Shown here one piece after another: positions 3,019 through 64,000 of a DNA stretch of 64,000 nt. The stretch is from Bacteroidota bacterium. GTDB taxonomy: Bacteria > Bacteroidota > Bacteroidia > Bacteroidales > Prolixibacteraceae. The notes below the pieces were generated by a model. That model worked only from the letters and a program-made list of their open reading frames with translations, was not told where the DNA came from and did no database searches. Positions within the stretch are counted from its first letter, which is position 1. The number at the start of each line of letters is the position of its first letter. Location of the stretch: positions 1 to 64,000 of the forward strand of contig JAUYMU010000005.1 of assembly GCA_030698405.1 (NCBI GenBank), written 5' to 3'. The position numbers were made by a program, and so were the translations under genes.

Positions 3019-6000
3019 TTACTCCACCTTTACCCGTATTCCTTCCGAATGTGCTGCGAATTCTGGTGCATACATACATTGAACCGAAGTAATCCCATTA
3101 GAAAATTCACCCTTTTGTGTGGCAACCAACTTGTATTCGAATACATAAGTTCCTTTGGGCAACCAGCTAATAAAGAAGTTGGTCGAAGCATCGAGTGTTG
3201 ATTCGTAATAGCCAAGTCCGTCCTGCCAACGGTATCCTGAAAGTATATTGACAGGTTCGAAAGTAGATGCCCGCATGTCTTTCAGGTGAATGTATTCCAT
3301 GTCACGGTCTGACCGAAGTTCAACGCGAACCACAATCTTATCGCCAACCTGAATGGATGAATTTTCCGTAATTGGTTCAATGACCGGTCCTGTTGGCGTA
3401 TTTAATTCGCGGAATAATTTCTTGTTCAGGCTAAGCGGTGTTTGAGCCGGGGTGATTTTATCCAGTTGTTCGAAATACTGCCAGTACATCGCGCCCCATG
3501 CCACGGTCGGATTTGGATTGTTAACGGTCACTTTTCCCATTTCAGGTTTGATTTCCGAAGCGCCCCAACTGGTTTTGAAATAGCCGGTTCCAGCCTCCGG
3601 TTTCGAACCATCCTGCTTGTACGGATCAACTTTTTCGTTGCCTACGGTAATTTCTACCTGCTTGTCGGAAGCAAGCAGTGATGAGCCACGTAGCAACAAT
3701 GCGTAAACCGCTTCGGTTGTGGCTTTGGTGGTTTTCCAATCCTGAGTTTGTTTCTGTTTGAGCAGCCAGATTTTCATTTCTTCCACCGATTTTTGGTCAT
3801 TGCTGACTTCGTCAAAAGCTTCGATTAAAAGTGCCTGTGTTTCCACCGGCGCCTGATGCCACAACCAGCCGCGCTGTTCGTTTCTCCAGTACATTCCCAT
3901 TTCTTCAGAGTGCAAGGCAGTTTCCTTCAGCGAACGCATAATTAGCGAAGCCGTTTTTTCTTCGCCTGAACGGTTGAGGTACAAGGCCATCATCGCTTTC
4001 ATGTAGTTGTTTTGCGACTTCCAGTATTTGATGGATTGCGCTTTGTAATAGTCAAGCATCTCGGTGTATTCCTTGGAAATTGGGAATTCAGTAGTGAAAT
4101 AAGTTCGTGCATATAAATACTGAATGTCGCCATATCCCAGATGATTGTTTTTTAGGTAGTCTTTATCATCCTTTTTGATTTTTTCAAAATCAATTTTCAA
4201 AGTTTCATCAAGATAGTCAATGGCTTTTTTTAGCATCCTGTTGGTTTCGCTGTTTTCAAGCGGATTCAAAACCTTCAGGATGTACAAATGACCAAGACCT
4301 GTGACGATGTGCTGGGTGATGTAGCGACTTTCGGGCATTCCGGCAAACCAGGGCCAGCCACCATTTGGATTCTGCATGTCACGCAGTTTTTTCATGGCCG
4401 AAGACTGTTCCGAAGCCATCCGGTTCAGGTCGAAAAGCAACCCAATGCGTTGTTTGCGTTCACTTTCGCTGATTGCCTGGCGTACCCACGGACTTTCCTG
4501 AAGTAACACCGATTTTAATTCCTCGTTTTTTTCAAGGTTCGATTTCAGCGCATCCGGAGAAATGGTTTTCCAGGTTTCGAATATGCGTTTGATTTTCGGA
4601 TCGCTGTTGGCAATGTGGGTTGCCAGACTGTTGGCGTAATACCGGCTGAAAAGCTGTTCGGCACAATCGTACGGATATTCCATCAGGTAAGGCAATGCCT
4701 GCACGGCGTACCAGGCCGGATTCGAAGTATATTCGAGCGTAAGCCTGTAATTTCGCAACGTTGAGCCGGACTTTCCGGAGTTGATGAGTTTGTCGAAGTT
4801 GAACTTCTTTTGCTGCATACCGTTCACAGGCAACGGCATTGATTCGGTGACCAGCATCCGGTTGGTCAAAACAGGAATTGCTGCTTCTTCGCCATCACTG
4901 AATGTGCCTGAACTGGCTGTAATGCGGTAAACAACCGCTTGCAAACCTTCAGGAATACTGATTTTCCAGCTTACCGGCGAACTGAGCCCTTTATTGACTG
5001 CGAACGGAATATTTGCCGGTTTTAAACCCAAAATATCGTCGATTGGGTTCATGGTCAATGCGTCGAAGAAATGCAGCTCTGCTGTTCCTGAAAGGTCGCG
5101 ATCGCTGATGTTCGAGATTTTTGCAGCGAATTCCATCGTGTCGCCTTCGCGCATAAAACGTGGTGCATTGGTGAAAATCATCAGGTCTTTTTGAGTCACC
5201 AGCGTTTTCTCGATCTGTCCGTATTTCAAATCTTTGGTATGTGCCAATCCCATCATTTTCCAACGGGTAAGGGCTTCCGGAGCTTTGAATTTCAGGACAA
5301 TTTCGCCGTTTTCGTTGGTTGCCAACTGTGGAAAGAAAAAGGCGGTTTCGTTCAGGTTCTTGCGAATTTGGATGGCTTGCGGTTCTACAGGTTTTTGAAC
5401 CGGTGTGTTTTCTACGACCGACACCGCCCCTGTTAAAGACATTTTTTTCTCCATTTTGACATCGCTGACTGTAGCTTCATCGACCATTGCAAACATTTGC
5501 ACTTCTGAACTTTTCCCCCTTATCATGATACTCCCACTCTTCATCATTCGTATCCCACCTCCTGAATGTCCATTGTCAAATCCAAACCAGTTCAACTGGT
5601 CGTATTCACGCGATACCGGTTGGAAAAGCATTTCAGGATAATTAAACTGGTCGCCGGATTTGATTCCGAAACATTGATTGTCGGTCCATGGCCGTGTTCC
5701 GTAGTAGGAGTTGAAAATATTGAACGACCAGTTGTGTGGTACAAATGCGTCGAGCGAAGCATCGTACATCCCGGCAAGCATTTCGGCAACGGCTTTTTCT
5801 CCTTTGTTGTCGCGCAGGGTAATCTGCCATTCTTCTTCCTGTCCGGGCAGCAACTTATTCCGGAAAGTCGCGAATTGGATATCCAGTTTTTTATTGGTGT
5901 ACGGAACAGTAATTTGTGTGCTTTCCATGAAAGAACGGTTGTTTTTCACCATCGCCAGATTGATGGAGAAATTGCCCCGGTATTCTTCTTTTACGGGAAT

Positions 6001-9000
6001 ACTAATCAACTTCTGTTCATTGCTTAAGCTGAGAATTTCGCGGCTTAGAACTTTATCTTTCAGGACAATTTCATAGAAAATATTCGCTTTTTTAAGCGGT
6101 GTGGAGATGAGAAACTGAACATTCTGCCCTGGGTCCGCAGTTGGAGTTAACAGGGTAAATGAAAAAGGAGAAACACTTTCGGTTTTGGCAGATTTTGGCT
6201 GAAATGCGTTGAAATATTTTTGATACACAACCTCTTCTCCGAAAGCATCTTTGGTCTTAATTTCAATTACATACATGCCAGCCTGAATTGAGTTTTCAGG
6301 CTTAAAAATTGAGTCGGCAGGTGTGCTGAAGCTGGCTGAAAATACAGTACTTTCTTTTGCCCAGGTGCTTACATCGTCTTCGTCATTGTAAACTTCACCG
6401 GGAAATTCCTTTTCGAACTCACTTTTTGTCATTGTAAACTTATCCGGACGCTGCCATTTGCGCGAATACAGCACCTGATTTGGTTTCCGGAGTTTGGAGA
6501 TAGTAATGTTTCCTGAAGCGGCTTCTTTTTCGCCGTTCAGATTGGTTGTGGAAAGCGAAAACTGAAAGCCTTTTTCAAGGTTGATGTCGTCTGCCAAATC
6601 CGTTTTTATCAGGAGCGCCTGGTATCCAACCGAAACAGCGGTTTCGGCGCTGTGACTTTCTCCGTTGATATCGGCAACATCGGCATAAACGGTATAGGAA
6701 AATACAGGATTGCTTTTTCGGTCAAGCGAAAGATCAGGAATTGCCTTGAAGGTAACGGCAAATGATCCATCGCTTCCGGTAACTGCTTCTCCATTGGTAA
6801 TTTCCATTTCTGCTGACCTTGGCATCCCGCGCCAATTCCACCAGTAGTAGGGGAAATGAGCCCGCCGAACCACCCTGTAATTCACTTTGGCATCGGAAAC
6901 CGTACTTCCGGCGTAAGCCATTGCTTTTCCTTTGGCTGTGACCATTTCGCCCAATTTGTACGATCCTTTTACGGGTTCAAATGTGACTTCAAATTTGGGT
7001 CGTTTGTATTCTTCAACCTGTATAGAAACGCCTCCTGATTGGCAATTAATATTCATCGTTCCGGTTAATGCGCCTTGAGGAGCAGTGAAACTTCCGGCGA
7101 ATGAGCCAAAATCGTTGGTCGTTAGGTTTAGTTTTGAAACTGCCTGTCCATTTGCATCAGTGAAAGTAACTTCAGTCTTGTACTTCGTCTTTATCTTTAC
7201 ATCTTCACCCTTTCGTTCCAGCACAATTCCTTTGAAATAGATCGTTTGTCCCGGACGATAAATAGCCCGATCGGTAAAAAACTGGGTCTGAACAAAAGTC
7301 TGTGGTTCATTTTCCTGATAGGAATACGATGAAAAATAACTTTCTGTAATTAACTGATCATCCTTGTATTTGAAGACCAGATAAAACTGATTGTGCCTCC
7401 GATTGTCACTTCTGGCAGGAATACTTACCATTCCTGATTTGTTGCTCACATAAATTTCTCCGGCTTTATTATCATATTTCCGGGAAATGGAGTTGTATTC
7501 ACGGTAAAACTGCTGCACTTTTACGCCTGAAAGTGGTAACCCAGAATCGCGGTGCAACACCACAATTTCGTTATTGCCTTTGCTATCGTTCCGGCTGATA
7601 TAGCTGATGTTGCTTACCCAGAAACTGTTGGCAGTTAGCATTGCCGTTTTGGACGGGAATGTTGGATCGCTGCTTGCAAGAAGAACGTAGTGACCACGTG
7701 GCATGGCTGGTAGTTTTATTTCGGCGGAATGATTCCGGTAATCTCCATCATCGGGAAGCGCTTGTTCCCAGCTTGTTTCTGGTTTAGTATTACGATATTT
7801 TTCGAGCCTGATTTCCGAATTTTCAACCTGACGTTCATGGTCGGTTTCAGGATCAATTTTCAGGAGGCGGAAGTAAACTTTAGAAACATTTTTGAATTCC
7901 ACCAAAGCCAGTGAGGGCTTTCCAATAATCGTTGCATATCCGGCAGTAATGGACAAGGATGGTTGTTTGATACTTTCAATCAACGAGCGGCAGTTGATTG
8001 CTCCAAAACTATCCGGGAAACGGGCAATAGCTTTATCACAGATTTCAACAGCATTTTTTTTATCCCATTTATTTTTTTCTGAAATGGTCTGAACTGAAGT
8101 TGATTGACCTTTGTATGGAATCACCTCCTGCTCTCCATCGTTGTTAAGTTGAACTGCTATTTGATAAGCAACTTCGGTGGATGATGGATGATTCAGGTAT
8201 TTATTTTCCAACTGATACAAAGCTGCAAGGTACAGGCTGTCCTTTTCTGGAAGGGTACTTTTTTGGTGAACAAACGAAAGTCGTTCCAGATCAGCATCAA
8301 TCAATGCAGTTGGATCAGTGTCATTCAGGTGAAGATTCACAACTTCCTGATAAAGTTTCAATGCCTGAAATTCAAACGAAAATGCATCAGGAGAAGTGAT
8401 ATTTAATGCTGAAAATTCGGTGGAAGTTCCAAAGTAACCGGCATTATCTAAAAGAAAAGTAATTGCCGGTTTTGTGAGTCCGGCATCTGAAGATGAATAA
8501 AAGTCGATGGCCCGGTGTGCCAGTAAATCAAATAAAGTGGGCCTGAATTTCTGTGAATCATCCTGTTTGATCAGTATTTCTGAATAGGAGCTTAAAGCGG
8601 TATTTTTCAGTAAATCTTTGTCTGACAGCGATGCGGCATAGTTTTCCATGCAGGCAGATACGATTTTTTTCAAATCCCAGGTTTTGAGATCGCCCGGAAG
8701 AAAGTTGGATGTTTCGCTGCGTTCATGTATCTGCCAACGATTATTTTGGTAATACCGCCAGTAAAGTTCCGCCACAATTGAATGCAGTATTTGTTTCACC
8801 GGAGCTTTTGCCGATTGAATTTCAAGCCCGGTTCGTTCAATGGCTTTCTCATAATAATCTTCCTGAAAATCGGCTTCCAGCTTCATCCGGTACAAGGATG
8901 CTTTTACAAACTGGTCGGCCTGGTTGGAGGCTTTGGTTTGATCGTAGATGCGATTCACAATATCGAGCGCTGACTGTGATTGGCCAAGGTTGGAAAGTGA

Positions 9001-23785: not shown

Positions 23786-23960
23786 TTAGTCGATTAGTTC
23801 TGTTATTGTTTCAAAAATGTTTTTTGCACTCTCGTATAATGCCAGCGCATCTTTCCGGGTAGGCTTGCCAGAAGCAATCATTCCAATCTTCAAGAATTCG
23901 TTCACAGTTGATCAAGTCGGCTTTTGCAAAATCAAGCCATTGCTGGGTGCTTGTTTTCAT
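23786..23960 (-). pseudogene. HEPN-domain toxin remnant with internal deletion
   Basis: From the ATG at 23960 the frame gives MKTSTQQWLDFAKADLINCE.., the standard start of a HEPN protein. It soon runs out of frame. A second frame downstream gives IASGKPTRKDALALYESAKN and ends ETITELID at 23786, the standard HEPN C-terminus. The central part, about half the domain with the catalytic R-X4-6-H region, is missing. It overlaps the nucleotidyltransferase gene by 29 bases, the usual MNT-HEPN order. The toxin is therefore dead. Confidence 0.8.
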
Positions 23961-56897: not shown

Positions 56898-57926
56898 ATG
56901 ATGGAAACAAAAACTCCGCTCTTCGGAAAAACACTCAATGAACTCACCGCTTTAGCGATTGAACTCGGTCTGCCCAAATTTACCGGCAAACAAATGGCCG
57001 AATGGCTCTATCAGAAAGACATTGCTTCGATTGAAGAAATGACCAACCTGTCGAAAAAAGCGCGTGAACTGCTGAGTGGGCGATTCGAATTTGGGTTGGT
57101 CGATTCAACCAAAGTTCAGGAAAGTATTGACGGAACCAAGAAATACCTGTTTCCAACCGCAAAAGGTAAATTTATCGAAACGGCCATGATTCCCGATGAC
57201 GACCGCAAAACGGTTTGCGTTTCGTCGCAGGTGGGTTGCAAAATGGGCTGTTTGTTCTGCATGACCGGCAAACAGGGGTTTCAGGGGCAATTAACTGCCG
57301 GCGAAATTGTGAACCAAATTCGCAATATTCCTGAAAGGCGCGATATCACCAACATTGTCTATATGGGAATGGGCGAGCCTTTCGACAATCTGGAAGTAGT
57401 GCTGAAAAGCCTCGAAATACTGACCTCGGAATGGGGTTTTGCCATGAGCCCGCGCCGGATAACGGTTTCAACCATTGGAATTGTACCGGGAATGGTGACT
57501 TTCCTAAACCAGTCGGAAGCACATTTGGCCGTAAGTATGCACACGCCGTTCGACGATGAACGTGAAAAACTGATGCCCGTACAAATTGCTTATCCGCTGG
57601 CTGAAGTAATCCGCGAAATAAAAAGCTGGGACTTTGGCCGTCAGCGCCGCGTTTCGTTCGAATACATTGTTTTTAAAGGCCTGAACGATTCGCCCCGACA
57701 TGTGCGCGAGCTGGCTCAAATACTGAATGGCATCAAATGCCGCATCAACCTAATACGTTTCCATCCAATCCCCGGAACACCGCTTGAAGGAACCGACGAA
57801 GCCACCCTTCAGAAATTTAAAGAACAGCTCAACGACAAAGGCATTTTAACCACTATCCGTGCCAGCCGTGGCCAGGACATTTATGCGGCTTGTGGGTTAT
57901 TGAGTACGAAGGAGATGATGGGGTAG
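56898..57926 (+). CDS. rlmN: 23S rRNA A2503 / tRNA A37 C2-methyltransferase
   Basis: A radical SAM enzyme that methylates C2 of an adenosine in 23S rRNA. The cluster motif is CKMGCLFCMTG. YMGMGEPFDN, RRITVSTIGIVPGM and HTPFDDEREKLMP follow. Its C-terminal segment GQDIYAACGLL holds the second catalytic cysteine. Full length at 342 residues. The last 87 bases are repeated at 59445-59531, so this 3' end may have been supplied by an integrated element that restored the gene. Confidence 0.96.
   Translation: MMETKTPLFGKTLNELTALAIELGLPKFTGKQMAEWLYQKDIASIEEMTNLSKKARELLSGRFEFGLVDSTKVQESIDGTKKYLFPTAKGKFIETAMIPDDDRKTVCVSSQVGCKMGCLFCMTGKQGFQGQLTAGEIVNQIRNIPERRDITNIVYMGMGEPFDNLEVVLKSLEILTSEWGFAMSPRRITVSTIGIVPGMVTFLNQSEAHLAVSMHTPFDDEREKLMPVQIAYPLAEVIREIKSWDFGRQRRVSFEYIVFKGLNDSPRHVRELAQILNGIKCRINLIRFHPIPGTPLEGTDEATLQKFKEQLNDKGILTTIRASRGQDIYAACGLLSTKEMMG
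57840..57926 (+). other. rlmN 3' tail, putative attachment side 1
   Basis: The terminal 87 bases of rlmN, of which 78 match the copy at 59445-59531. The last 27 bases are identical. Most differences fall in third codon positions. Taken with the copy, it looks like one boundary of an inserted segment of about 1.6 kb. Confidence 0.55.
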
Positions 57927-59110: not shown

Positions 59111-59444
59111 ATTTTTAAGATTTGATTATTCCTAATTGTTTTGTCTGTCGTGTTTAAAAGTGTCTTTATTACTTAGCTCCCTCTTTGAAAATGGCGATAA
59201 TATGGAAGCGCTTTCTCTTTTTTCCGTTTCCGCACGTCGGGAAAACCTTCTGCTGAAAACCGACTTTTCAATTCGCGTTAAACTCGTTCACGAAAATAGC
59301 GATTTTCTATCAATGCGCGATGGAAATAAATCTTCCGTTAGATATTCTTCGGTGTCACGCGAATTTTCTGCGAAACACGGATGATTTAAGCCATAAATAA
59401 ATTCTGCCGAAACACTCATTTTTTATGAACAGCATAACTTTATG
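59111..59444. other. Gap of unclear content before the second rlmN tail
   Basis: A 334-base stretch with an 82-residue rightward frame (59136-59384) whose last part reads LKTDFSIRVKLVHENSDFLS. It has no convincing start signal or ribosome site. It could be a gene remnant. Nothing else is supported. Confidence 0.3.
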
Positions 59445-59531
59445 GGCATTTTAACCAACATTCGAACCAGCCGTGGACAGGACATTTATGCGGCTTGCGG
59501 CTTGTTGAGTACGAAGGAGATGATGGGGTAG
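59445..59531 (+). pseudogene. Second copy of the rlmN 3' tail
   Basis: Translates as the final residues of RlmN (GILTNIRTSRGQDIYAACGLL ends then STKEMMG and TAG) but has no upstream gene body. 78 of 87 bases match the true tail; of eight changed codons six are synonymous. This suggests a tail that evolved under selection in another rlmN, then was displaced, rather than a recent copy that decayed. Confidence 0.85.
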
Positions 59532-59596
59532 AGCAGTTTCAAGTTTCAGGTTTCAAGTTTCAAGTTGCGCAGTTTTTTACTGAAAATCTTTCCTAT

Positions 59597-59821
59597 TCAG
59601 TTCTTGTTTCCACTCCAAAGTGTCGTTTCAAAAACGATAAGATCCATCAGGGTGTCTGAATCATTGTCCGCATCAAAAACAAACATCTTCCCATCCCAAG
59701 ACCCCAGCATTTTGGCCGCTGAGATTAATTCCTGCTTATTGCTGTCAACTGCATAGTTAAAAATATCACCTGCTAATTCTTTTCCGGATTCCCTAATGGC
59801 CTTGTAATCTGTTAATTCCAT
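59597..59821 (-). CDS. Small hypothetical protein at the end of the type I locus
   Basis: A 74-residue acidic protein beginning MELTDYKAIRESGKELAG, with a pattern LGSWDGKMFVFDADNDSDTLMDL that could be a compact domain. No family recognised. It is the last leftward frame of the type I restriction locus and ends shortly after the second rlmN tail. It could be an immunity or regulatory protein; context only. Confidence 0.55.
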   Translation of the reverse strand: MELTDYKAIRESGKELAGDIFNYAVDSNKQELISAAKMLGSWDGKMFVFDADNDSDTLMDLIVFETTLWSGNKN

Positions 59822-59857: not shown

Positions 59858-59963
59858 TTATTGTGTTTCCGAAGCTGCCGCAATTTTCATCACTTCGTTT
59901 TCAGCATAAATAACTGTCAAGGTTCTTTCGAAATCGTCGAACAATTGAATTATGACTGTTCAT
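59858..59963 (-). pseudogene. Remnant Z: short gene with start and end in different frames
   Basis: An ATG at 59963, exactly 8 bases after TTGGGAGG in the rhuM end, begins MNSHNSIVRRFRK and closes early. In another frame the sequence reads LFDDFERTLTVIYAENEVMK and ends IAAASETQ at 59858. The ending resembles that of remnant Y (VAAATET). It is probably a gene with its centre lost. Confidence 0.45.
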
Positions 59964-60978
59964 CTTTTTTTCCTCCCAACTCTTTTTTTATCATTCTATC
60001 GAAATCGGATTCAAACAATTGATCTTGCACAATGCGGTATTTTTCAAATTCAGTTTCAGCAAAAGCTTTGGCAATTTCTGCGGAAATTTTTCCGGCGTGC
60101 TGTAGTATCTCGCGGTCGTCGAAAGTTAGAAACAAGTCAAGGCGTTTTGCCCAGTCTTCCATGGTCATGGGCATTTTGCGTTTGGCGCGTTCTTCGGCCA
60201 GATCGAGGTAAGCATTCACGATACGTCCCAATGATTGTAGTTCGTCTTGCGATAAATAGTTTTTTGCAACGAAAACATCGCTTTTCAGAATCTTTCCTTC
60301 GGGACTGTTTTCCCAGTGTGTAAGCCCCATGTGTTGTTTTCGGCTATCGGCGTGTTTTACAATCAGTTCGGCTGCCGTGTTGCCGTGTATGGCATAGTGC
60401 AGTTTGTTTTGAACCTTGGCAAAAAAGGTCCGGGTAGTAGGTGCATCGTTGTTGTAATCGATACTGGTAGCATAAATGTCAGTAATTTTCTGGTAAAAGA
60501 GGCGTTCGCTCAGGCGTATCTCCCTGATCTCTTCGAGCAGACGTTCGAAATAGTTTTCGCCCAAAAAAGAGCCGTTCTCCATGCGTTTTTTGTCTATCAC
60601 ATAACCTTTAATGGCAAAATCGCGCAACACTTGCGTGGCCCATTGCCGAAACTGCGTGGCTCGGGTGCTGTTCACCCGGTATCCAACAGAGATAATGGCA
60701 TCAAGATTGTAAAATTGTGTGTTGTAGTTTTTGCCATCGGCGGCAGTTATTCGAAATTTTCGAATAACTGAATTTTCTTGTAGTTCCTCTGCTTTAAAAA
60801 TCTCTTTTAGGTGATAATTGATGGTGTTCACTTCAACCTCGAATAACGTTGCCATCAATTTTTGACTTAACCAAATGGTTTCGTCCTCGTAACGAGCCTT
60901 GATTGATTTCTCAGCGCTTTGCGTCGTGAAGATCAGGAATTCGGCTGTACTGTTGCGTATTTGAGTCTTTTTACTCAT
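59950..60978 (-). CDS. RhuM-family protein, intact copy
   Basis: A 342-residue RhuM-family protein, commonly found beside type I restriction genes. The N-terminal DNA-binding-like region is ETIWLSQKLMATLFEVEVNTINYHLKEIF, then SVIRKFRITAADGK, FYNLDAIISVGYRV and FRQWATQVLRDF. The C-terminal half is helical (VAKNYLSQDELQSLGRIVNAYLDLAE) and ends FESDFDRMIKKELGG. Biochemical role is unknown. Its start overlaps the end of a defective second copy by 8 bases. A 27-base palindrome lies in its coding region (60744-60770). Confidence 0.88.
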   Translation of the reverse strand: MSKKTQIRNSTAEFLIFTTQSAEKSIKARYEDETIWLSQKLMATLFEVEVNTINYHLKEIFKAEELQENSVIRKFRITAADGKNYNTQFYNLDAIISVGYRVNSTRATQFRQWATQVLRDFAIKGYVIDKKRMENGSFLGENYFERLLEEIREIRLSERLFYQKITDIYATSIDYNNDAPTTRTFFAKVQNKLHYAIHGNTAAELIVKHADSRKQHMGLTHWENSPEGKILKSDVFVAKNYLSQDELQSLGRIVNAYLDLAEERAKRKMPMTMEDWAKRLDLFLTFDDREILQHAGKISAEIAKAFAETEFEKYRIVQDQLFESDFDRMIKKELGGKKDEQS

Positions 60979-61314
60979 AGTTTGCTCCTCCCAATTCTTT
61001 TTTTATCAGTTTATCGTAATCGGATTCAAATAGTTGGTCTTGCACGATCTTGTATTTTCAAATCTTTTCCCTTCGGTTTGAACTATTCGAAAATTTCGAA
61101 TAGTTGCCTCCTCCTTTTGTTCCTGTATTTTGTAAATCTCTTTGATATGGTAATTGATCGTATTTACCTCTACCTCAAAAAGCACGGCAAGCAACTTTTG
61201 GGTGAGCCATACGGTTTCATCTTCAATTCGCACATCAATGGTACTTTCGCCTGCCTGTTTGGTGAAAACCAGAAACTCGGCTGTACTATTGCGTGTTTGC
61301 AGGTTTTTACTCAT
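60971..61314 (-). pseudogene. Second RhuM-family copy with large internal deletion
   Basis: From the ATG at 61314 the frame gives 80 residues matching the intact copy (TAEFLVFTKQAGE, ETVWLTQKLLAVLFEVEVN, ATIRNFRIVQTEG). It then jumps, out of frame, to the last 30 residues (YKIVQDQLFESDYDKLIKKE then LGGANYE), stopping at 60971. About 230 central residues are missing. The junction is near 61047-61058. A 25-base palindrome remains at 61081-61105. Confidence 0.85.
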
Positions 61315-61397
61315 GGTTTAATCCTCCCAATTGCTTATTTATTTCAACTTCCAGCTCTTTTGATTGCACAGCACTTTTCTATTTTTTCATTTTCCAT
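61307..61397 (-). pseudogene. Remnant X: start and tail of an unidentified gene
   Basis: Begins MENEKIEK at 61397 and shifts into a frame reading SAVQSKELEVEINKQLGG then LNHE, stopping at 61307 inside the start of the second rhuM. The tail shape (coiled EVEIN.QLGG) could be the end of a type I HsdM-like or similar protein. Centre missing. Confidence 0.45.
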
Positions 61398-61404
61398 ACC
61401 AATT

Positions 61405-61486
61405 TTAAAAACCCACATCCTTTTTTAAGTAAGTAGTTTCTGTTGCTGCCGCAACCCTCAATATCTTGAATGTCGAGTTCGTTCAT
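61405..61486 (-). pseudogene. Remnant Y: start and tail of an unidentified gene
   Basis: Begins MNELDIQD at 61486 and in another frame reads ILRVAAATETTYLKKDVGF to a stop at 61405. The tail resembles remnant Z. Start and stop neighbours are close (12 bases after dinD end, 7 bases before X), as expected of a former operon member. Confidence 0.4.
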
Positions 61487-61497
61487 TTTGTTTTTTG

Positions 61498-62127
61498 CTA
61501 TTTTTTATCAATTCTTTTCTTCTCTTTATTTTCAATTTGCTTGATGCTTTCTTCCGTTGGTAAATTTTCGGGCATGGTGCCACCCAATTCTTTAATGGTT
61601 TGACGTACCTTTTTCTAAGCGGCATAATCAACAGGCTCAATAACTCCGGCATCTTTGGCTGCCTCGGCCAACTGAGTGTTGTGCGTTTTCATTTCGTTAC
61701 GCAGGAACAACCGTTTTTCTTCTTCGGTAGTCAATCGGTTGTACTCATCCATTTGCCGAATTTCCTGCAACCGGGTTTGAATGGCAAAATAAGTTTGACC
61801 GGTGGCAACAATTTCTTTCGATGGATCGGCATTTTGGACAATGAGGTAACAGGCGTAGCGTGAGAGTTTTACACTTGGATACAATTGTGTTGCACCTTTA
61901 CCATGAGTTATCTCCTCGTTGAATTCAACAAGGTGATGCCCTATTTCCTGTCCACTATTTTTACATGCTTCTTTGGCTTTTTCAATTACAGAAAGAAAAT
62001 TTCTGAAGTCAGTGTATTCAAGAGCCTTGGCCAGTTGGCGTGCGCCCCAATATTCATTTCCATGTTCATCGACCTGACGTATTTGTTCAAAAATGCTCAG
62101 GGCTTTTTTTGATAATTCGTTTGCCAT
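61498..62127 (-). pseudogene. DinD-like gene with internal deletion
   Basis: The first 170 residues are DinD-like (IFEQIRQVDEHGNEYWGARQ, LEYTDFRNFLSVIEKA, GVIEPVDYA). A stop follows at once. In another frame the normal C-terminus KKVRQTIKELGGTMPENLPT continues to IENKEKKRIDKK and a stop at 61498. About 80-90 residues between them are gone. DinD/BRO-type proteins inhibit RecA filaments in characterised cases and are common near type I loci. Confidence 0.82.
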
Positions 62128-62184
62128 ATTTATTCGTGTTTAGGGTTCTTATCTTGGCTTTGATGTTGCTTACTAGCCGCCTAT

Positions 62185-62192
62185 CCTCCCAA
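62185..62192 (-). promoter_or_regulatory. Junction-type ribosome site at the ancestral hsdS end
   Basis: TTGGGAGG followed by ATAG, encoding the ancestral last residues MILGG of hsdS in the shifted frame. The same octamer precedes four other starts in this locus at an exact 8-base distance. Here no start follows at 8 bases. Confidence 0.5.
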
Positions 62193-62203
62193 TATCATTT
62201 TCT

Positions 62204-63574
62204 CTACTTCGCGTTTGGCTTCTTCCAACACCCTCCCGGCTCCGCAGCCACATCCATTCCTTCCGTTACTTCGTAGCTTACCTTTTCTTTGGCGCCTACC
62301 GTAACCTGCCCGTTCATCAGCATGGGCAACAGCCAGTCGCGGAGCGAAGCGAGTTGCTGGTTTTCGAGCTCAAGTAGATTTTGCCGTTCAAATATTGGCG
62401 TTATAACTTCCGTAAATTTCTTAACGACACTCTTCTCTGGAAAGCAGGTTTTTATGGTCTTTAAAATACCACTGGATATTTCTTTAAATGTTGATCCTAC
62501 TGCATGATTTTCAATTGTTGGAATCAAATTCTTGATTGTGTAGCAAATATATTCTGTGGGGAATCCTTTATTTGGTATAAATGATTTAAAGCCTTGATTG
62601 GTTGTTACTTTTTCGCGCGAAATTGCCAAATAACCTATGGGGGCGCGAGAACTGAATAACACTGTACCTTTTGGCATAATATTTAAAGAAGCAGCTTTTA
62701 TTCCTTTTTCACTGACATCCAATTCACCTTTTGTAATGAATTTATTTCCTGAATTTAAAGACAAATCTTTAGGCGTAATCCAGGCAGTACCAGTCTTCGA
62801 AAAGTATTCATCTATTTCTCGTGGAGGCGTGCTACCTCCAATGATCTCACCTAAACAAGATAAATTTCCAACTTTCCATCCCTCCGGAATCTCCCTTTTC
62901 AATTCCTCGTTCCAAACCATTTTGCCGCCACTGGACTTGTAGCCCCTGCCTTCGGTGGTTGAGTTTGTAGAGGCGTTCCCTGAGCTTGTCGAAGGGGGAA
63001 ACTCAAACTGCACAAACCAGTAATCGTAAAGCAATTTGGCCATTTGCTCCAACTCGCGGTTGATGCGGTTGTTGAGTTCGATTTTGGAATCGAGGGAGGA
63101 AAGTACGGAAGCGATTTTTTGTTGGGTGCTTACATCAGGAATTGGTAAAACTTGTAACTTCAAAGCACCTTCATTTACTCTCTTACGGCCAGAAGTGCCT
63201 TCCATACAGCTTATTGCTTTTTTTCTAAAAGCAGGGCTTTTGGCTAAGTAAAAAACATAATCCTGAATAGAGTTCCCATTACTTCTTAAAACTATGAATT
63301 CTGAAGAGCCAAATGCAACCTCTCCATCATCCAAAATATCAACTTGTGCAGTTTTCCCATTTTCAAGACAAGGTGTTATTTTTGCAACCAATGTATCTCC
63401 ATTTCGAAATTTTGGACCCGCACTGTATTCTGCCAACACGAATCCTCTAATTTTCTTTTCAAATGGAGTCAGCTTTTCCATTGCTATTTTCTTAGCAATG
63501 TTCCCTTTTGTAATTCTTTCAGGAGGATTAAATTGAATTGCTTTCCCAAGTTCTATATTTCTCCAACTACTCAT
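62204..63574 (-). CDS. hsdS: Type I restriction specificity subunit
   Basis: A 456-residue HsdS with two target-recognition domains (residues about 1-150 and 235-400), each followed by a conserved helix: TQQKIASVLSSLDSKIELNN and ENQQLASLRDWLLPMLMNG. The second domain opens IPEGWKVGNLSCLGEIIGG. A linker near residue 200 (PSTSSGNASTNSTTEG) is translated from a REP-like repeat. The C-terminus looks frameshifted: near 62245 the frame that continues family-like (VLEEAKREVEKMILGG) is replaced by GCWKKPNAK. hsdM and hsdR are expected beyond the right edge. Confidence 0.92.
   Translation of the reverse strand: MSSWRNIELGKAIQFNPPERITKGNIAKKIAMEKLTPFEKKIRGFVLAEYSAGPKFRNGDTLVAKITPCLENGKTAQVDILDDGEVAFGSSEFIVLRSNGNSIQDYVFYLAKSPAFRKKAISCMEGTSGRKRVNEGALKLQVLPIPDVSTQQKIASVLSSLDSKIELNNRINRELEQMAKLLYDYWFVQFEFPPSTSSGNASTNSTTEGRGYKSSGGKMVWNEELKREIPEGWKVGNLSCLGEIIGGSTPPREIDEYFSKTGTAWITPKDLSLNSGNKFITKGELDVSEKGIKAASLNIMPKGTVLFSSRAPIGYLAISREKVTTNQGFKSFIPNKGFPTEYICYTIKNLIPTIENHAVGSTFKEISSGILKTIKTCFPEKSVVKKFTEVITPIFERQNLLELENQQLASLRDWLLPMLMNGQVTVGAKEKVSYEVTEGMDVAAEPGGCWKKPNAK
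62948..62996. repeat. REP-like element inside hsdS
   Basis: CCTTCGGTGGTTGAG and TGAGCTTGTCGAAGG face each other with a short spacer. The right half is the inverse of the unit at 15957-15976. It is read in frame as a Ser/Thr-rich linker between the two recognition domains, so the coding frame tolerates it. Confidence 0.65.
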
Positions 63575-63701
63575 CCTTCGCCCCTCCCAACTTTTTGATC
63601 AGTTTATCGAAATCGGATTCATAGCTATTATAGAGTTTTCGCTTATTTGAGTTATCCGGAATTTCCGGATAGGTGCAATTCTCATTTATTTCGTTGTTCA
63701 T
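63567..63701 (-). pseudogene. 44-residue frame upstream of hsdS, probable rhuM-type remnant
   Basis: ATG at 63701 follows a GGAGG site. The translation starts MNNEINENCTYPEIPDNS and ends YESDFDKLIKKLGGAKDE, the last part matching the RhuM C-termini. In a shifted frame the early part reads PIRKFRITQ, matching RhuM as well. So it looks like a RhuM-type gene cut down to two ends. Its stop overlaps the hsdS start by 8 bases, so it may survive as a coupling leader. Confidence 0.55.
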
Positions 63702-63704
63702 AAT

Positions 63705-64000
63705 TTAATCCTCCGCCAGATTTTCAAATTCGTGCAGCCATTCGGTCAGTTTTTGCTGTAGCAATTGTTTGTCGGGCAAATAGAGGCTGTATTCCGAAGC
63801 ATAAATATTGGCTTCTTTTCAGAATATCTTCGGGTTTTACCACCCTGTGGCCTTCGTTGGCCAGCTTCATCACTTCTTCTTTGTTCCGGCTCAAAGCAAG
63901 GCGTTCGTAAAGTGATGAGTGGTATTGACGTTTCAAGTCTTTTAAGCTCCAATTGTTCGCGGCACATTCAATCTCATAAAAGCTACGCTCCTGTGGATTT
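63705..64000 (-). pseudogene. DUF1016 (YhcG-type PD-(D/E)XK nuclease) gene with internal deletion, 5' end outside
   Basis: The right edge cuts the gene. The visible part reads ERSFYEIECAANNWSLKDLK, YHSSLYERLALSRNKEEV and VKPEDILK, the DUF1016 N-terminal core. It then shifts frame near 63830 to ANIYASEYSLYLPDK and QKLTEWLHEFENLAED, the DUF1016 C-terminus, stopping at 63705. The central nuclease half is missing. DUF1016 genes often accompany type I loci. Confidence 0.75.

What the first reader, a model, noticed from the sequence alone, without database searches (positions are those of the whole stretch)
59858..64000. Accessory genes of the type I locus have lost their centres but kept both ends
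At least three recognisable genes (dinD, second rhuM, DUF1016) and four small frames (44-residue frame, X, Y, Z) keep a proper start and a proper family-type end, with the middle gone and the ends out of frame. Random decay would also remove ends. Retention may preserve ribosome sites and overlaps that the operon needs, or reflect a deletion mechanism acting inside genes. The HEPN remnant at 23786-23960 shows the same pattern. An assembly fault is the main alternative.
Basis: partly seen in the sequence, partly recalled or inferred. Interest (0 to 1): 0.8.

Follow-up and report, generated by a model that had tools for sequence, protein, structure and literature searches.

The report
Dead defence genes keep ribosome-landing tails
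In a bacterial defence operon several accessory genes have lost their middles, and some of the surviving gene tails carry what looks like the ribosome-landing signal of the next gene, a signal that bacteria of this group are thought to ignore.

Summary
Observation largely right. Against intact homologues, DUF1016-B (377 bp lost), dinD (220), rhuM1 (about 700), a second-system hsdR cut to 82 bp (frame X, 3263 lost) and the operon's last gene (403 lost) keep both ends of one gene. The 44-residue frame looks like a rhuM remnant with both ends. Y and Z do not fit: Y's "start" is rhuM2's own C-terminus; Z joins an unknown start to an hsdM tail. Two junctions show 3-4 bp microhomology, the others short unassigned bases; no shared site. 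Scrap Z recurs in another genome and centre-losses with other breakpoints in further genomes, which argues against assembly error in general, not for each window junction.

Why ends stay (inferred): several tails hold the next gene's ribosome site. GGAGG precedes 6 of 12 gene starts here; among long ORFs 4 of 8, against 3 of 510 in background loci, although Bacteroidia ribosomes are reported to ignore it. It occurs in all three codon positions, persists in dead tails, and the hsdM tail is re-used upstream of rhuM, DUF1016 and hsdS, once in a shifted frame. This does not explain dinD, X or the last gene, nor retained starts; one-ended scraps are common too.

The parts
63724..64000 (-). DUF1016-B with centre lost; the gene begins at contig base 64488, beyond the window; junction about 63816-63819; original-frame C-terminus runs to about 63705, with GGAGG at 63710-63714 before the next start
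   Evidence: intact L030, L032; GGAGG in codon position 3
63567..63701 (-). 44-residue frame: RhuM-like start, frameshifted mid fragment (both by eye) and RhuM tail; GGGAGG, 8 nt before the hsdS start
   Evidence: Sequence; tail 83% to RhuM of L029; junction pattern 63568-63590
62204..63574 (-). hsdS, intact, two Methylase_S stretches
62182..62244 (-). Tail scrap of another HsdS (L036 477-aa type), overlapping the hsdS end
62139..62185 (-). Fragment near the 3' end of the second-system HsdS (83% to L041/L042)
   Evidence: HsdS of L031/L042 by Pfam
61498..62127 (-). dinD (Bro-N) with about 220 bp lost inside; reading stops at 61615; original-frame C-terminus 61498-61614
61405..61486 (-). Frame X: second-system hsdR (1111 aa in G007) reduced to first 23 and last 50 bp plus 9 unassigned
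   Evidence: (start also in L042)
61307..61397 (-). [not shown]
60971..61314 (-). rhuM1 with about 700 bp lost inside; tail carries GGGAGG before rhuM2
   Evidence: pattern 60972-60994
59950..60978 (-). rhuM2, intact RhuM; its tail also carries GGGAGG (59960-59984)
59858..59950 (-). Frame Y: HsdR tail joined just after rhuM2's stop; its apparent start is rhuM2's own C-terminus in another frame
59594..59821 (-). Last gene of the operon: 211-aa accessory gene (intact in L028; similar 210-aa gene in L118) with about 400 bp lost inside; both ends kept

Best explanation
This is a patchwork type I restriction-modification operon: intact hsdR, hsdM, DUF1016A, hsdS and rhuM2, interleaved with the ruins of a second system and of older accessory genes. 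The centres were lost by deletions without shared sites (shown). Much of what remains of a dead gene is what its intact neighbours need (inferred): in this operon type the last codons of several genes hold a strong Shine-Dalgarno sequence, GGAGG, usually 8 nt before the next start, which overlaps or lies close to the stop. Deletions that keep this tail leave the next gene translatable and survive. The hsdM tail (ending ...KQLGGLKYE, then ATGA) behaves like a portable ribosome site: copies detached from hsdM stand in front of rhuM, DUF1016 and hsdS in other Bacteroidota (shown as sequence; that they drive translation is inferred).
For: GGAGG precedes 6 of 12 starts here. Among ORFs of 150 aa or more: 4 of 8 here (the 8 include one antisense ORF), 6 of 46 in loci related to it, 3 of 510 in the rest, Fisher 8e-7 for first against last. 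In 19 junctions looked at it lies in codon positions 1, 2 and 3 and 15 have 8-nt spacing. It persists in dead tails: Z, 44-aa rhuM, rhuM1, DUF1016-B, L030, L032. In L118 a RhuM ends on the hsdM-tail nucleotides in a shifted frame. In L029 tblastn finds no HsdM or HsdR, yet an hsdM-type tail ends the Abi_2 gene before DUF1016A. A rhuM with no HsdR or HsdS match within 8 kb keeps HsdM's residues 494-541 just upstream (L124/L138). Of 45 RhuM ORFs listed, some truncated, the 2 with an LGG/GGAGG tail are both of this operon type. Pattern ARSARYTGGGAGGN8ATGA: 4 matches in the 5.49-Mb genome, all in this operon; 8 of 393 genomes of the order match, reversed control 1.
Against: dinD's and X's tails have no GGAGG before the following start, and the last gene has no operon gene after it, yet all keep both ends. 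Start scraps are not enriched at upstream stops; 19 of 31 tail scraps do not end within 30 nt of an intact same-strand start. Part of the GGAGG signal comes with a conserved Leu-Gly-Gly: synonymous recoding keeps GGAGG in about 36% of draws for each LGG tail, and tails share ancestry, so they are not independent. Bacteroidia ribosomes are reported not to recognise such sequences (PMC9976891, PMC6728339: passages seen). No expression data.
Confidence: 0.6

Rival explanations
1. Plain survivorship: random internal deletions were kept because they spared neighbouring genes; the GGAGG is a by-product of conserved Leu-Gly-Gly tails and plays no role.
For: No shared site at the breakpoints; dinD, X and the last gene keep ends without GGAGG; many scraps are one-ended or internal; Bacteroidetes reported not to use the motif (PMC6728339 passages).
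Against: GGAGG lies in three codon positions and survives in out-of-frame and stop-bearing tails; excess over background 4 of 8 against 3 of 510.
Confidence: 0.22
2. Assembly fault: repeats among rhuM and DUF1016 paralogues collapsed longer intact genes.
For: Draft genome of 138 contigs; no reads; none of the listed matches in 61 genomes spans the DUF1016-B, dinD, rhuM1 or X junction, the window's own genome apart (where only 4 candidates per genome were scored and the listing was cut).
Against: Scrap Z recurs in another genome; similar centre-losses with other breakpoints in G007, G014, G019 and G015/G006; the own-genome search listed no second copy of dinD or X (40 of 61 candidates scored).
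Confidence: 0.06
3. Cassette insertion: accessory genes enter at the hsdM-tail/start junction and duplicate it, so scraps are insertion scars as well as deletion remnants.
For: In L118 and L099 rhuM is flanked by hsdM-tail copies with identical 8-nt spacers (CTTAAAAT twice; GTTGACCT twice); two copies in one record (L136, L134; relative order not checked) differ at one of eight. Second hsdS-tail copies lie just upstream of another gene in G014 (L031), G012 (L042), L047 and L096 (HsdS by Pfam).
Against: Only three cases with matched spacers; the shared stretch varies (37-38 aligned bases in L099 and L118, 55 between the window's hsdM and Z), with no fixed outer edge; no recombinase searched for.
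Confidence: 0.35
4. A dedicated mechanism deletes gene interiors.
For: Two different hsdR families reduced to start plus end (X here; G014 L051, 3612 of 3858 bp).
Against: Breakpoints vary, no shared motif or repeat seen at the seven junctions measured; one-ended scraps common.
Confidence: 0.03

Closest known systems
Translational coupling by termination-reinitiation at overlapping genes (Nat Commun 2019, PMC6728339; passages seen)
   Same: Start of the downstream gene overlaps the upstream stop, with a Shine-Dalgarno motif inside the upstream gene's 3' end.
   Different: That survey gives Bacteroidetes about 10% or less of overlapping pairs with the motif and strong ones near zero; here it is strong, repeated along one operon and kept after the upstream gene died.
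rpsU autoregulation by ribosomes lacking bS21 in Flavobacterium johnsoniae (NAR 2023, PMC9976891; abstract and passages seen)
   Same: A strong Shine-Dalgarno sequence in a Bacteroidia mRNA.
   Different: There the exceptional gene is rpsU; here several genes of a restriction-modification operon. This genome's rpsU has no GGAGG in the 30 bases upstream. Pairing energies were not computed here.
Conserved Shine-Dalgarno sequences in intergenic spacers of Buchnera that also hold decaying pseudogenes (PLoS Genet 2011, PMC3164680; abstract and passages seen)
   Same: Ribosome sites persist while surrounding sequence decays.
   Different: Sites spread over many spacers of a reduced genome (88 in 78 spacers); a junction shared by unrelated genes is not what the passages describe.
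Type I restriction-modification operon with accessory genes, intact example Mariniphaga L118: hsdR (cut by the record's end)-hsdM-rhuM-DUF1016-hsdS-210-aa gene
   Same: Same gene families, overlaps and GGAGG junctions.
   Different: Window operon has extra dead genes and remains of a second system between hsdS and the last gene.

Membership tests
Type I restriction-modification operon | hsdR, hsdM and hsdS adjacent or nearly so on one strand | tested here: met
   HsdS, HsdM N6_Mtase and HsdR HSDR_N/SWI2_SNF2/T1R_D3, order, with DUF1016 and remnants between hsdM and hsdS
Gene with internal deletion (centre-loss pseudogene) | Both ends of one gene colinear with an intact homologue, interior absent | tested here: met
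   DUF1016-B, dinD, rhuM1, X, last gene
Gene with internal deletion (centre-loss pseudogene) | Same test for Y and Z | tested here: not met
   [not shown]
Shine-Dalgarno junction | GGAGG 4-10 nt before start, above background | tested here: met
Shine-Dalgarno junction | Drives translation in this organism | not testable with these tools
   Needs reporters or ribosome profiling
Termination-reinitiation coupling | Downstream translation depends on upstream translation | not testable with these tools
   Overlaps present; dependence unknown
Integron-like gene cassettes | Recombination site at fixed position and a dedicated integrase | tested here: inconclusive
   Direct repeats of variable length seen; no integrase searched for

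The most novel reading that the evidence does not exclude
The hsdM tail with its Shine-Dalgarno sequence and overlapping start is a portable cassette boundary in Bacteroidota: accessory defence genes enter type I operons at this junction, duplicating it, and are translated preferentially by ribosomes whose anti-Shine-Dalgarno tail is exposed (for example lacking bS21), so that a whole defence operon would answer to ribosome composition.
Probability: 0.18. Interest if true: 0.85.

Novelty: new variant of a known kind. Interest (0 to 1): 0.6.

Why it matters
Strong Shine-Dalgarno sequences are described as all but absent in Bacteroidia apart from a few ribosomal genes. An operon family that keeps them at several junctions, in any codon position and after the upstream gene has died, gives a natural test of whether and when Bacteroidia ribosomes use them. 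It also offers a simple reason why ruined genes in tight operons keep their tails, and a way to trace how accessory genes move through restriction loci.

Tried and rejected
Long direct repeats at deletion ends: none at the seven junctions measured. Out-of-frame stops placed to keep coupling: looked at by eye, but short out-of-frame stubs stop early anyway, so not counted. GGAGG before rpsU as a sign of bS21 control here: absent. Close relatives on plasmids: 30 records, all at 60-80% identity, none covering 80% of the query. Retained starts explained by overlap with the upstream stop: not supported by the census. Literature: searches returned no paper; in the listings (10 of 108; 12 of 358; 10 of 11; 10 of 11) I saw no title or abstract start describing these junctions or remnants; open PMC papers only, and apart from the three papers cited none was opened.

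Census limits: 71 loci from 19 of the 23 genomes held for the genus, chosen by matches to HsdM, RhuM, HsdR or the window DNA, so not random; ORFs of 150 aa or more count as intact genes; records are matches, so both halves of one remnant count separately. Dropped before the count: matches weaker than E 1e-3 or below 65% (DNA) or 50% (protein) identity, overlapping weaker matches, locus-edge matches, references covered for 75% or more, and one antisense ORF (L006_2919). 86 records were listed; 84 remained after two that cover 45% or more of the reference. Start matches to one long RhuM (L064_7435) recur and may be upstream sequence. Pattern scan of 84,980 species: 37 stretches, 23 are this junction by their flanking genes and 14 are not; L122 and L133 are the same sequence, L124 and L138 nearly so. 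The pattern required TGGGAGG, so variants are missed. Matches outside the window genome were not examined for flanking genes.
Full report
Setting. The window is bases 1-64000 of a 173,800-base contig in a 5.49-Mb, 138-contig genome. The minus-strand operon runs beyond the window: hsdR 67124-70201, hsdM 65496-67127, DUF1016A 64472-65509, DUF1016-B from 64488, the 44-residue frame, hsdS, then dinD, X, Z, rhuM1, rhuM2, Y and a 74-aa frame (HsdM and HsdR by Pfam).

Check of the observation. Comparison with related loci shows internal losses in DUF1016-B, dinD, rhuM1, X and the last gene. X is the most extreme: its parent is a 1111-aa HsdR (Pfam), intact in G007 (L028 1400-4735) and present by its first 751 residues, to the contig end, in G014, where it follows dinD, a 339-aa gene without Pfam match and a Fic-family gene. 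Another HsdR family met the same end in G014 (L051: first 196 and last 50 bp of 3858, 9 bp before an intact rhuM). Other centre-losses: rhuM in G007 (607 bp, in frame, 140 aa left), rhuM in G019 (about 200 bp), and an AlbA-family gene in G015 and G006 that share the left junction. One-ended scraps are frequent: hsdM tail only in L032, hsdS tail in L031 and L042, dinD tail in L042, hsdR starts in L068 and L069.

The window locus is a composite. L118 (Mariniphaga) has the simple form hsdR-hsdM-rhuM-DUF1016-hsdS-210-aa gene, its hsdR cut by the record's end. In the window an hsdS fragment, dinD and hsdR stub of a second type I system and two rhuM copies lie between hsdS and the 211-aa-type gene.

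Why the ends. At DUF1016A, DUF1016-B, the 44-aa frame, hsdS, rhuM1 and rhuM2 the start is preceded by GGAGG inside the upstream gene's tail; hsdR, hsdM, dinD, X, Z and the last gene lack it. In 564 long ORFs of the fetched loci 13 starts have it, 10 of them in loci of this operon family; split differently, 4 of 8 here, 6 of 46 in related loci, 3 of 510 in the rest. Synonymous recoding keeps the motif in about 36% of draws for each of five LGG tails and 4% for DUF1016A's Arg-Arg tail (the script did not find the DUF1016-B tail, so it is not included). The motif lies in codon position 1, 2 or 3 of the upstream frame; in 15 of 19 junctions the spacer is 8 nt, in the others 4, 4, 6 and 9. In L118 rhuM reads through the hsdM-tail nucleotides in another frame, and DUF1016A's tail there keeps AGGAGG in a different codon position from the window's DUF1016A. 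In scrap Z the window and G007 agree in 78 of 92 columns, with GGGAGG kept in both.

Portability. A scan of 84,980 species found 37 stretches with the long junction pattern. In 23 (24 matches) the flanking genes identify it as this junction; 21 of these 23 stretches carry titles within Bacteroidota (rank of some names from my own knowledge), one is an untitled bacterium and one an Ignavibacteria bin. In 16 matches the upstream frame is HsdM (some cut by the record's end), in 8 it is something else: the Z-like scrap, RhuM, DUF1016 scrap plus tail, DUF1016A fused to the tail, AlbA, or a bare tail before rhuM. That last rhuM (L124/L138) has HsdM residues 494-541 directly upstream and no HsdR or HsdS match in its 8 kb. 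In 120 genomes drawn from the family the stricter pattern with ATGAGTA occurs in 3: three times in this operon and once each in two other genomes, where HsdM, rhuM or DUF1016 frames flank it (control 0). The looser pattern occurs in 8 of 393 genomes of the order, 4 of the 12 places being in this operon and none elsewhere in this genome; the reversed control gave 1. Bacteroidia ribosomes are described as failing to recognise such sequences because the 16S tail is sequestered, with rpsU and, in Bacteroidales, often rpsR as exceptions (PMC9976891, abstract and passages); overlapping genes in Bacteroidetes carry the motif in about 10% (PMC6728339, passages).

Mechanism offered. Shown: deletions without shared sites; GGAGG-bearing tails before intact genes; the same tail on unrelated genes. 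Inferred: that the tails drive translation and that selection for this preserved them; that insertion at the junction duplicates it (matched spacers in L118, L099 and nearly in L136/L134). Not explained: retention of both ends in dinD, X and the last gene, which may be plain survivorship, and the HEPN remnant, which was not aligned with an intact relative.

Verdict. The general statement that dead genes keep both ends is only partly true.

Noticed in passing
L069 1431-5285 (G006): An HsdR open frame of 1284 aa carries a Y1 (IS200-like) transposase domain inside it (PF01797 at 718-802), while its relative in L068 is 1071 aa without that stretch and still open.
   Followed up: partly
window 59421-59528 (+): A copy of the last 36 codons of rlmN (intact at 56898-57926) lies beyond the 389-aa gene, also in G014 (L034) and G007 (L028), as if something had inserted at the rlmN 3' end.
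   Followed up: no
L029 (G010) 4653-8538: Type I core genes are lost or reduced (no HsdM or HsdR match in 14 kb, HsdS residues 376-448 only) while DUF1016A and rhuM stay intact, so accessory genes seem to outlive the core.
   Followed up: partly
L118 276-908; L028 5415-6050; window 59594-59821: A 210-211-aa gene recurs next to the type I operon; L028's copy has no Pfam match.
   Followed up: no
L124, L138: A rhuM away from other hsd genes keeps HsdM residues 494-541 just upstream; its neighbours in L138 are a 1097-aa frame with weak AAA matches below cut-off and a 453-aa frame without match.
   Followed up: partly
window 60744-60770: A near-perfect 27-bp palindrome within rhuM2 coding sequence (self match on the opposite strand), found inverted in G007's rhuM (L028 5034-5060).
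   Followed up: no
L076 3112-3250, 4165-4256, 5183-5304: The 5' start of one gene (L076_2109) is repeated three times downstream of it.
   Followed up: no
window 23786-23960: HEPN start and end kept next to an MNT gene, seen by eye only.
   Followed up: partly
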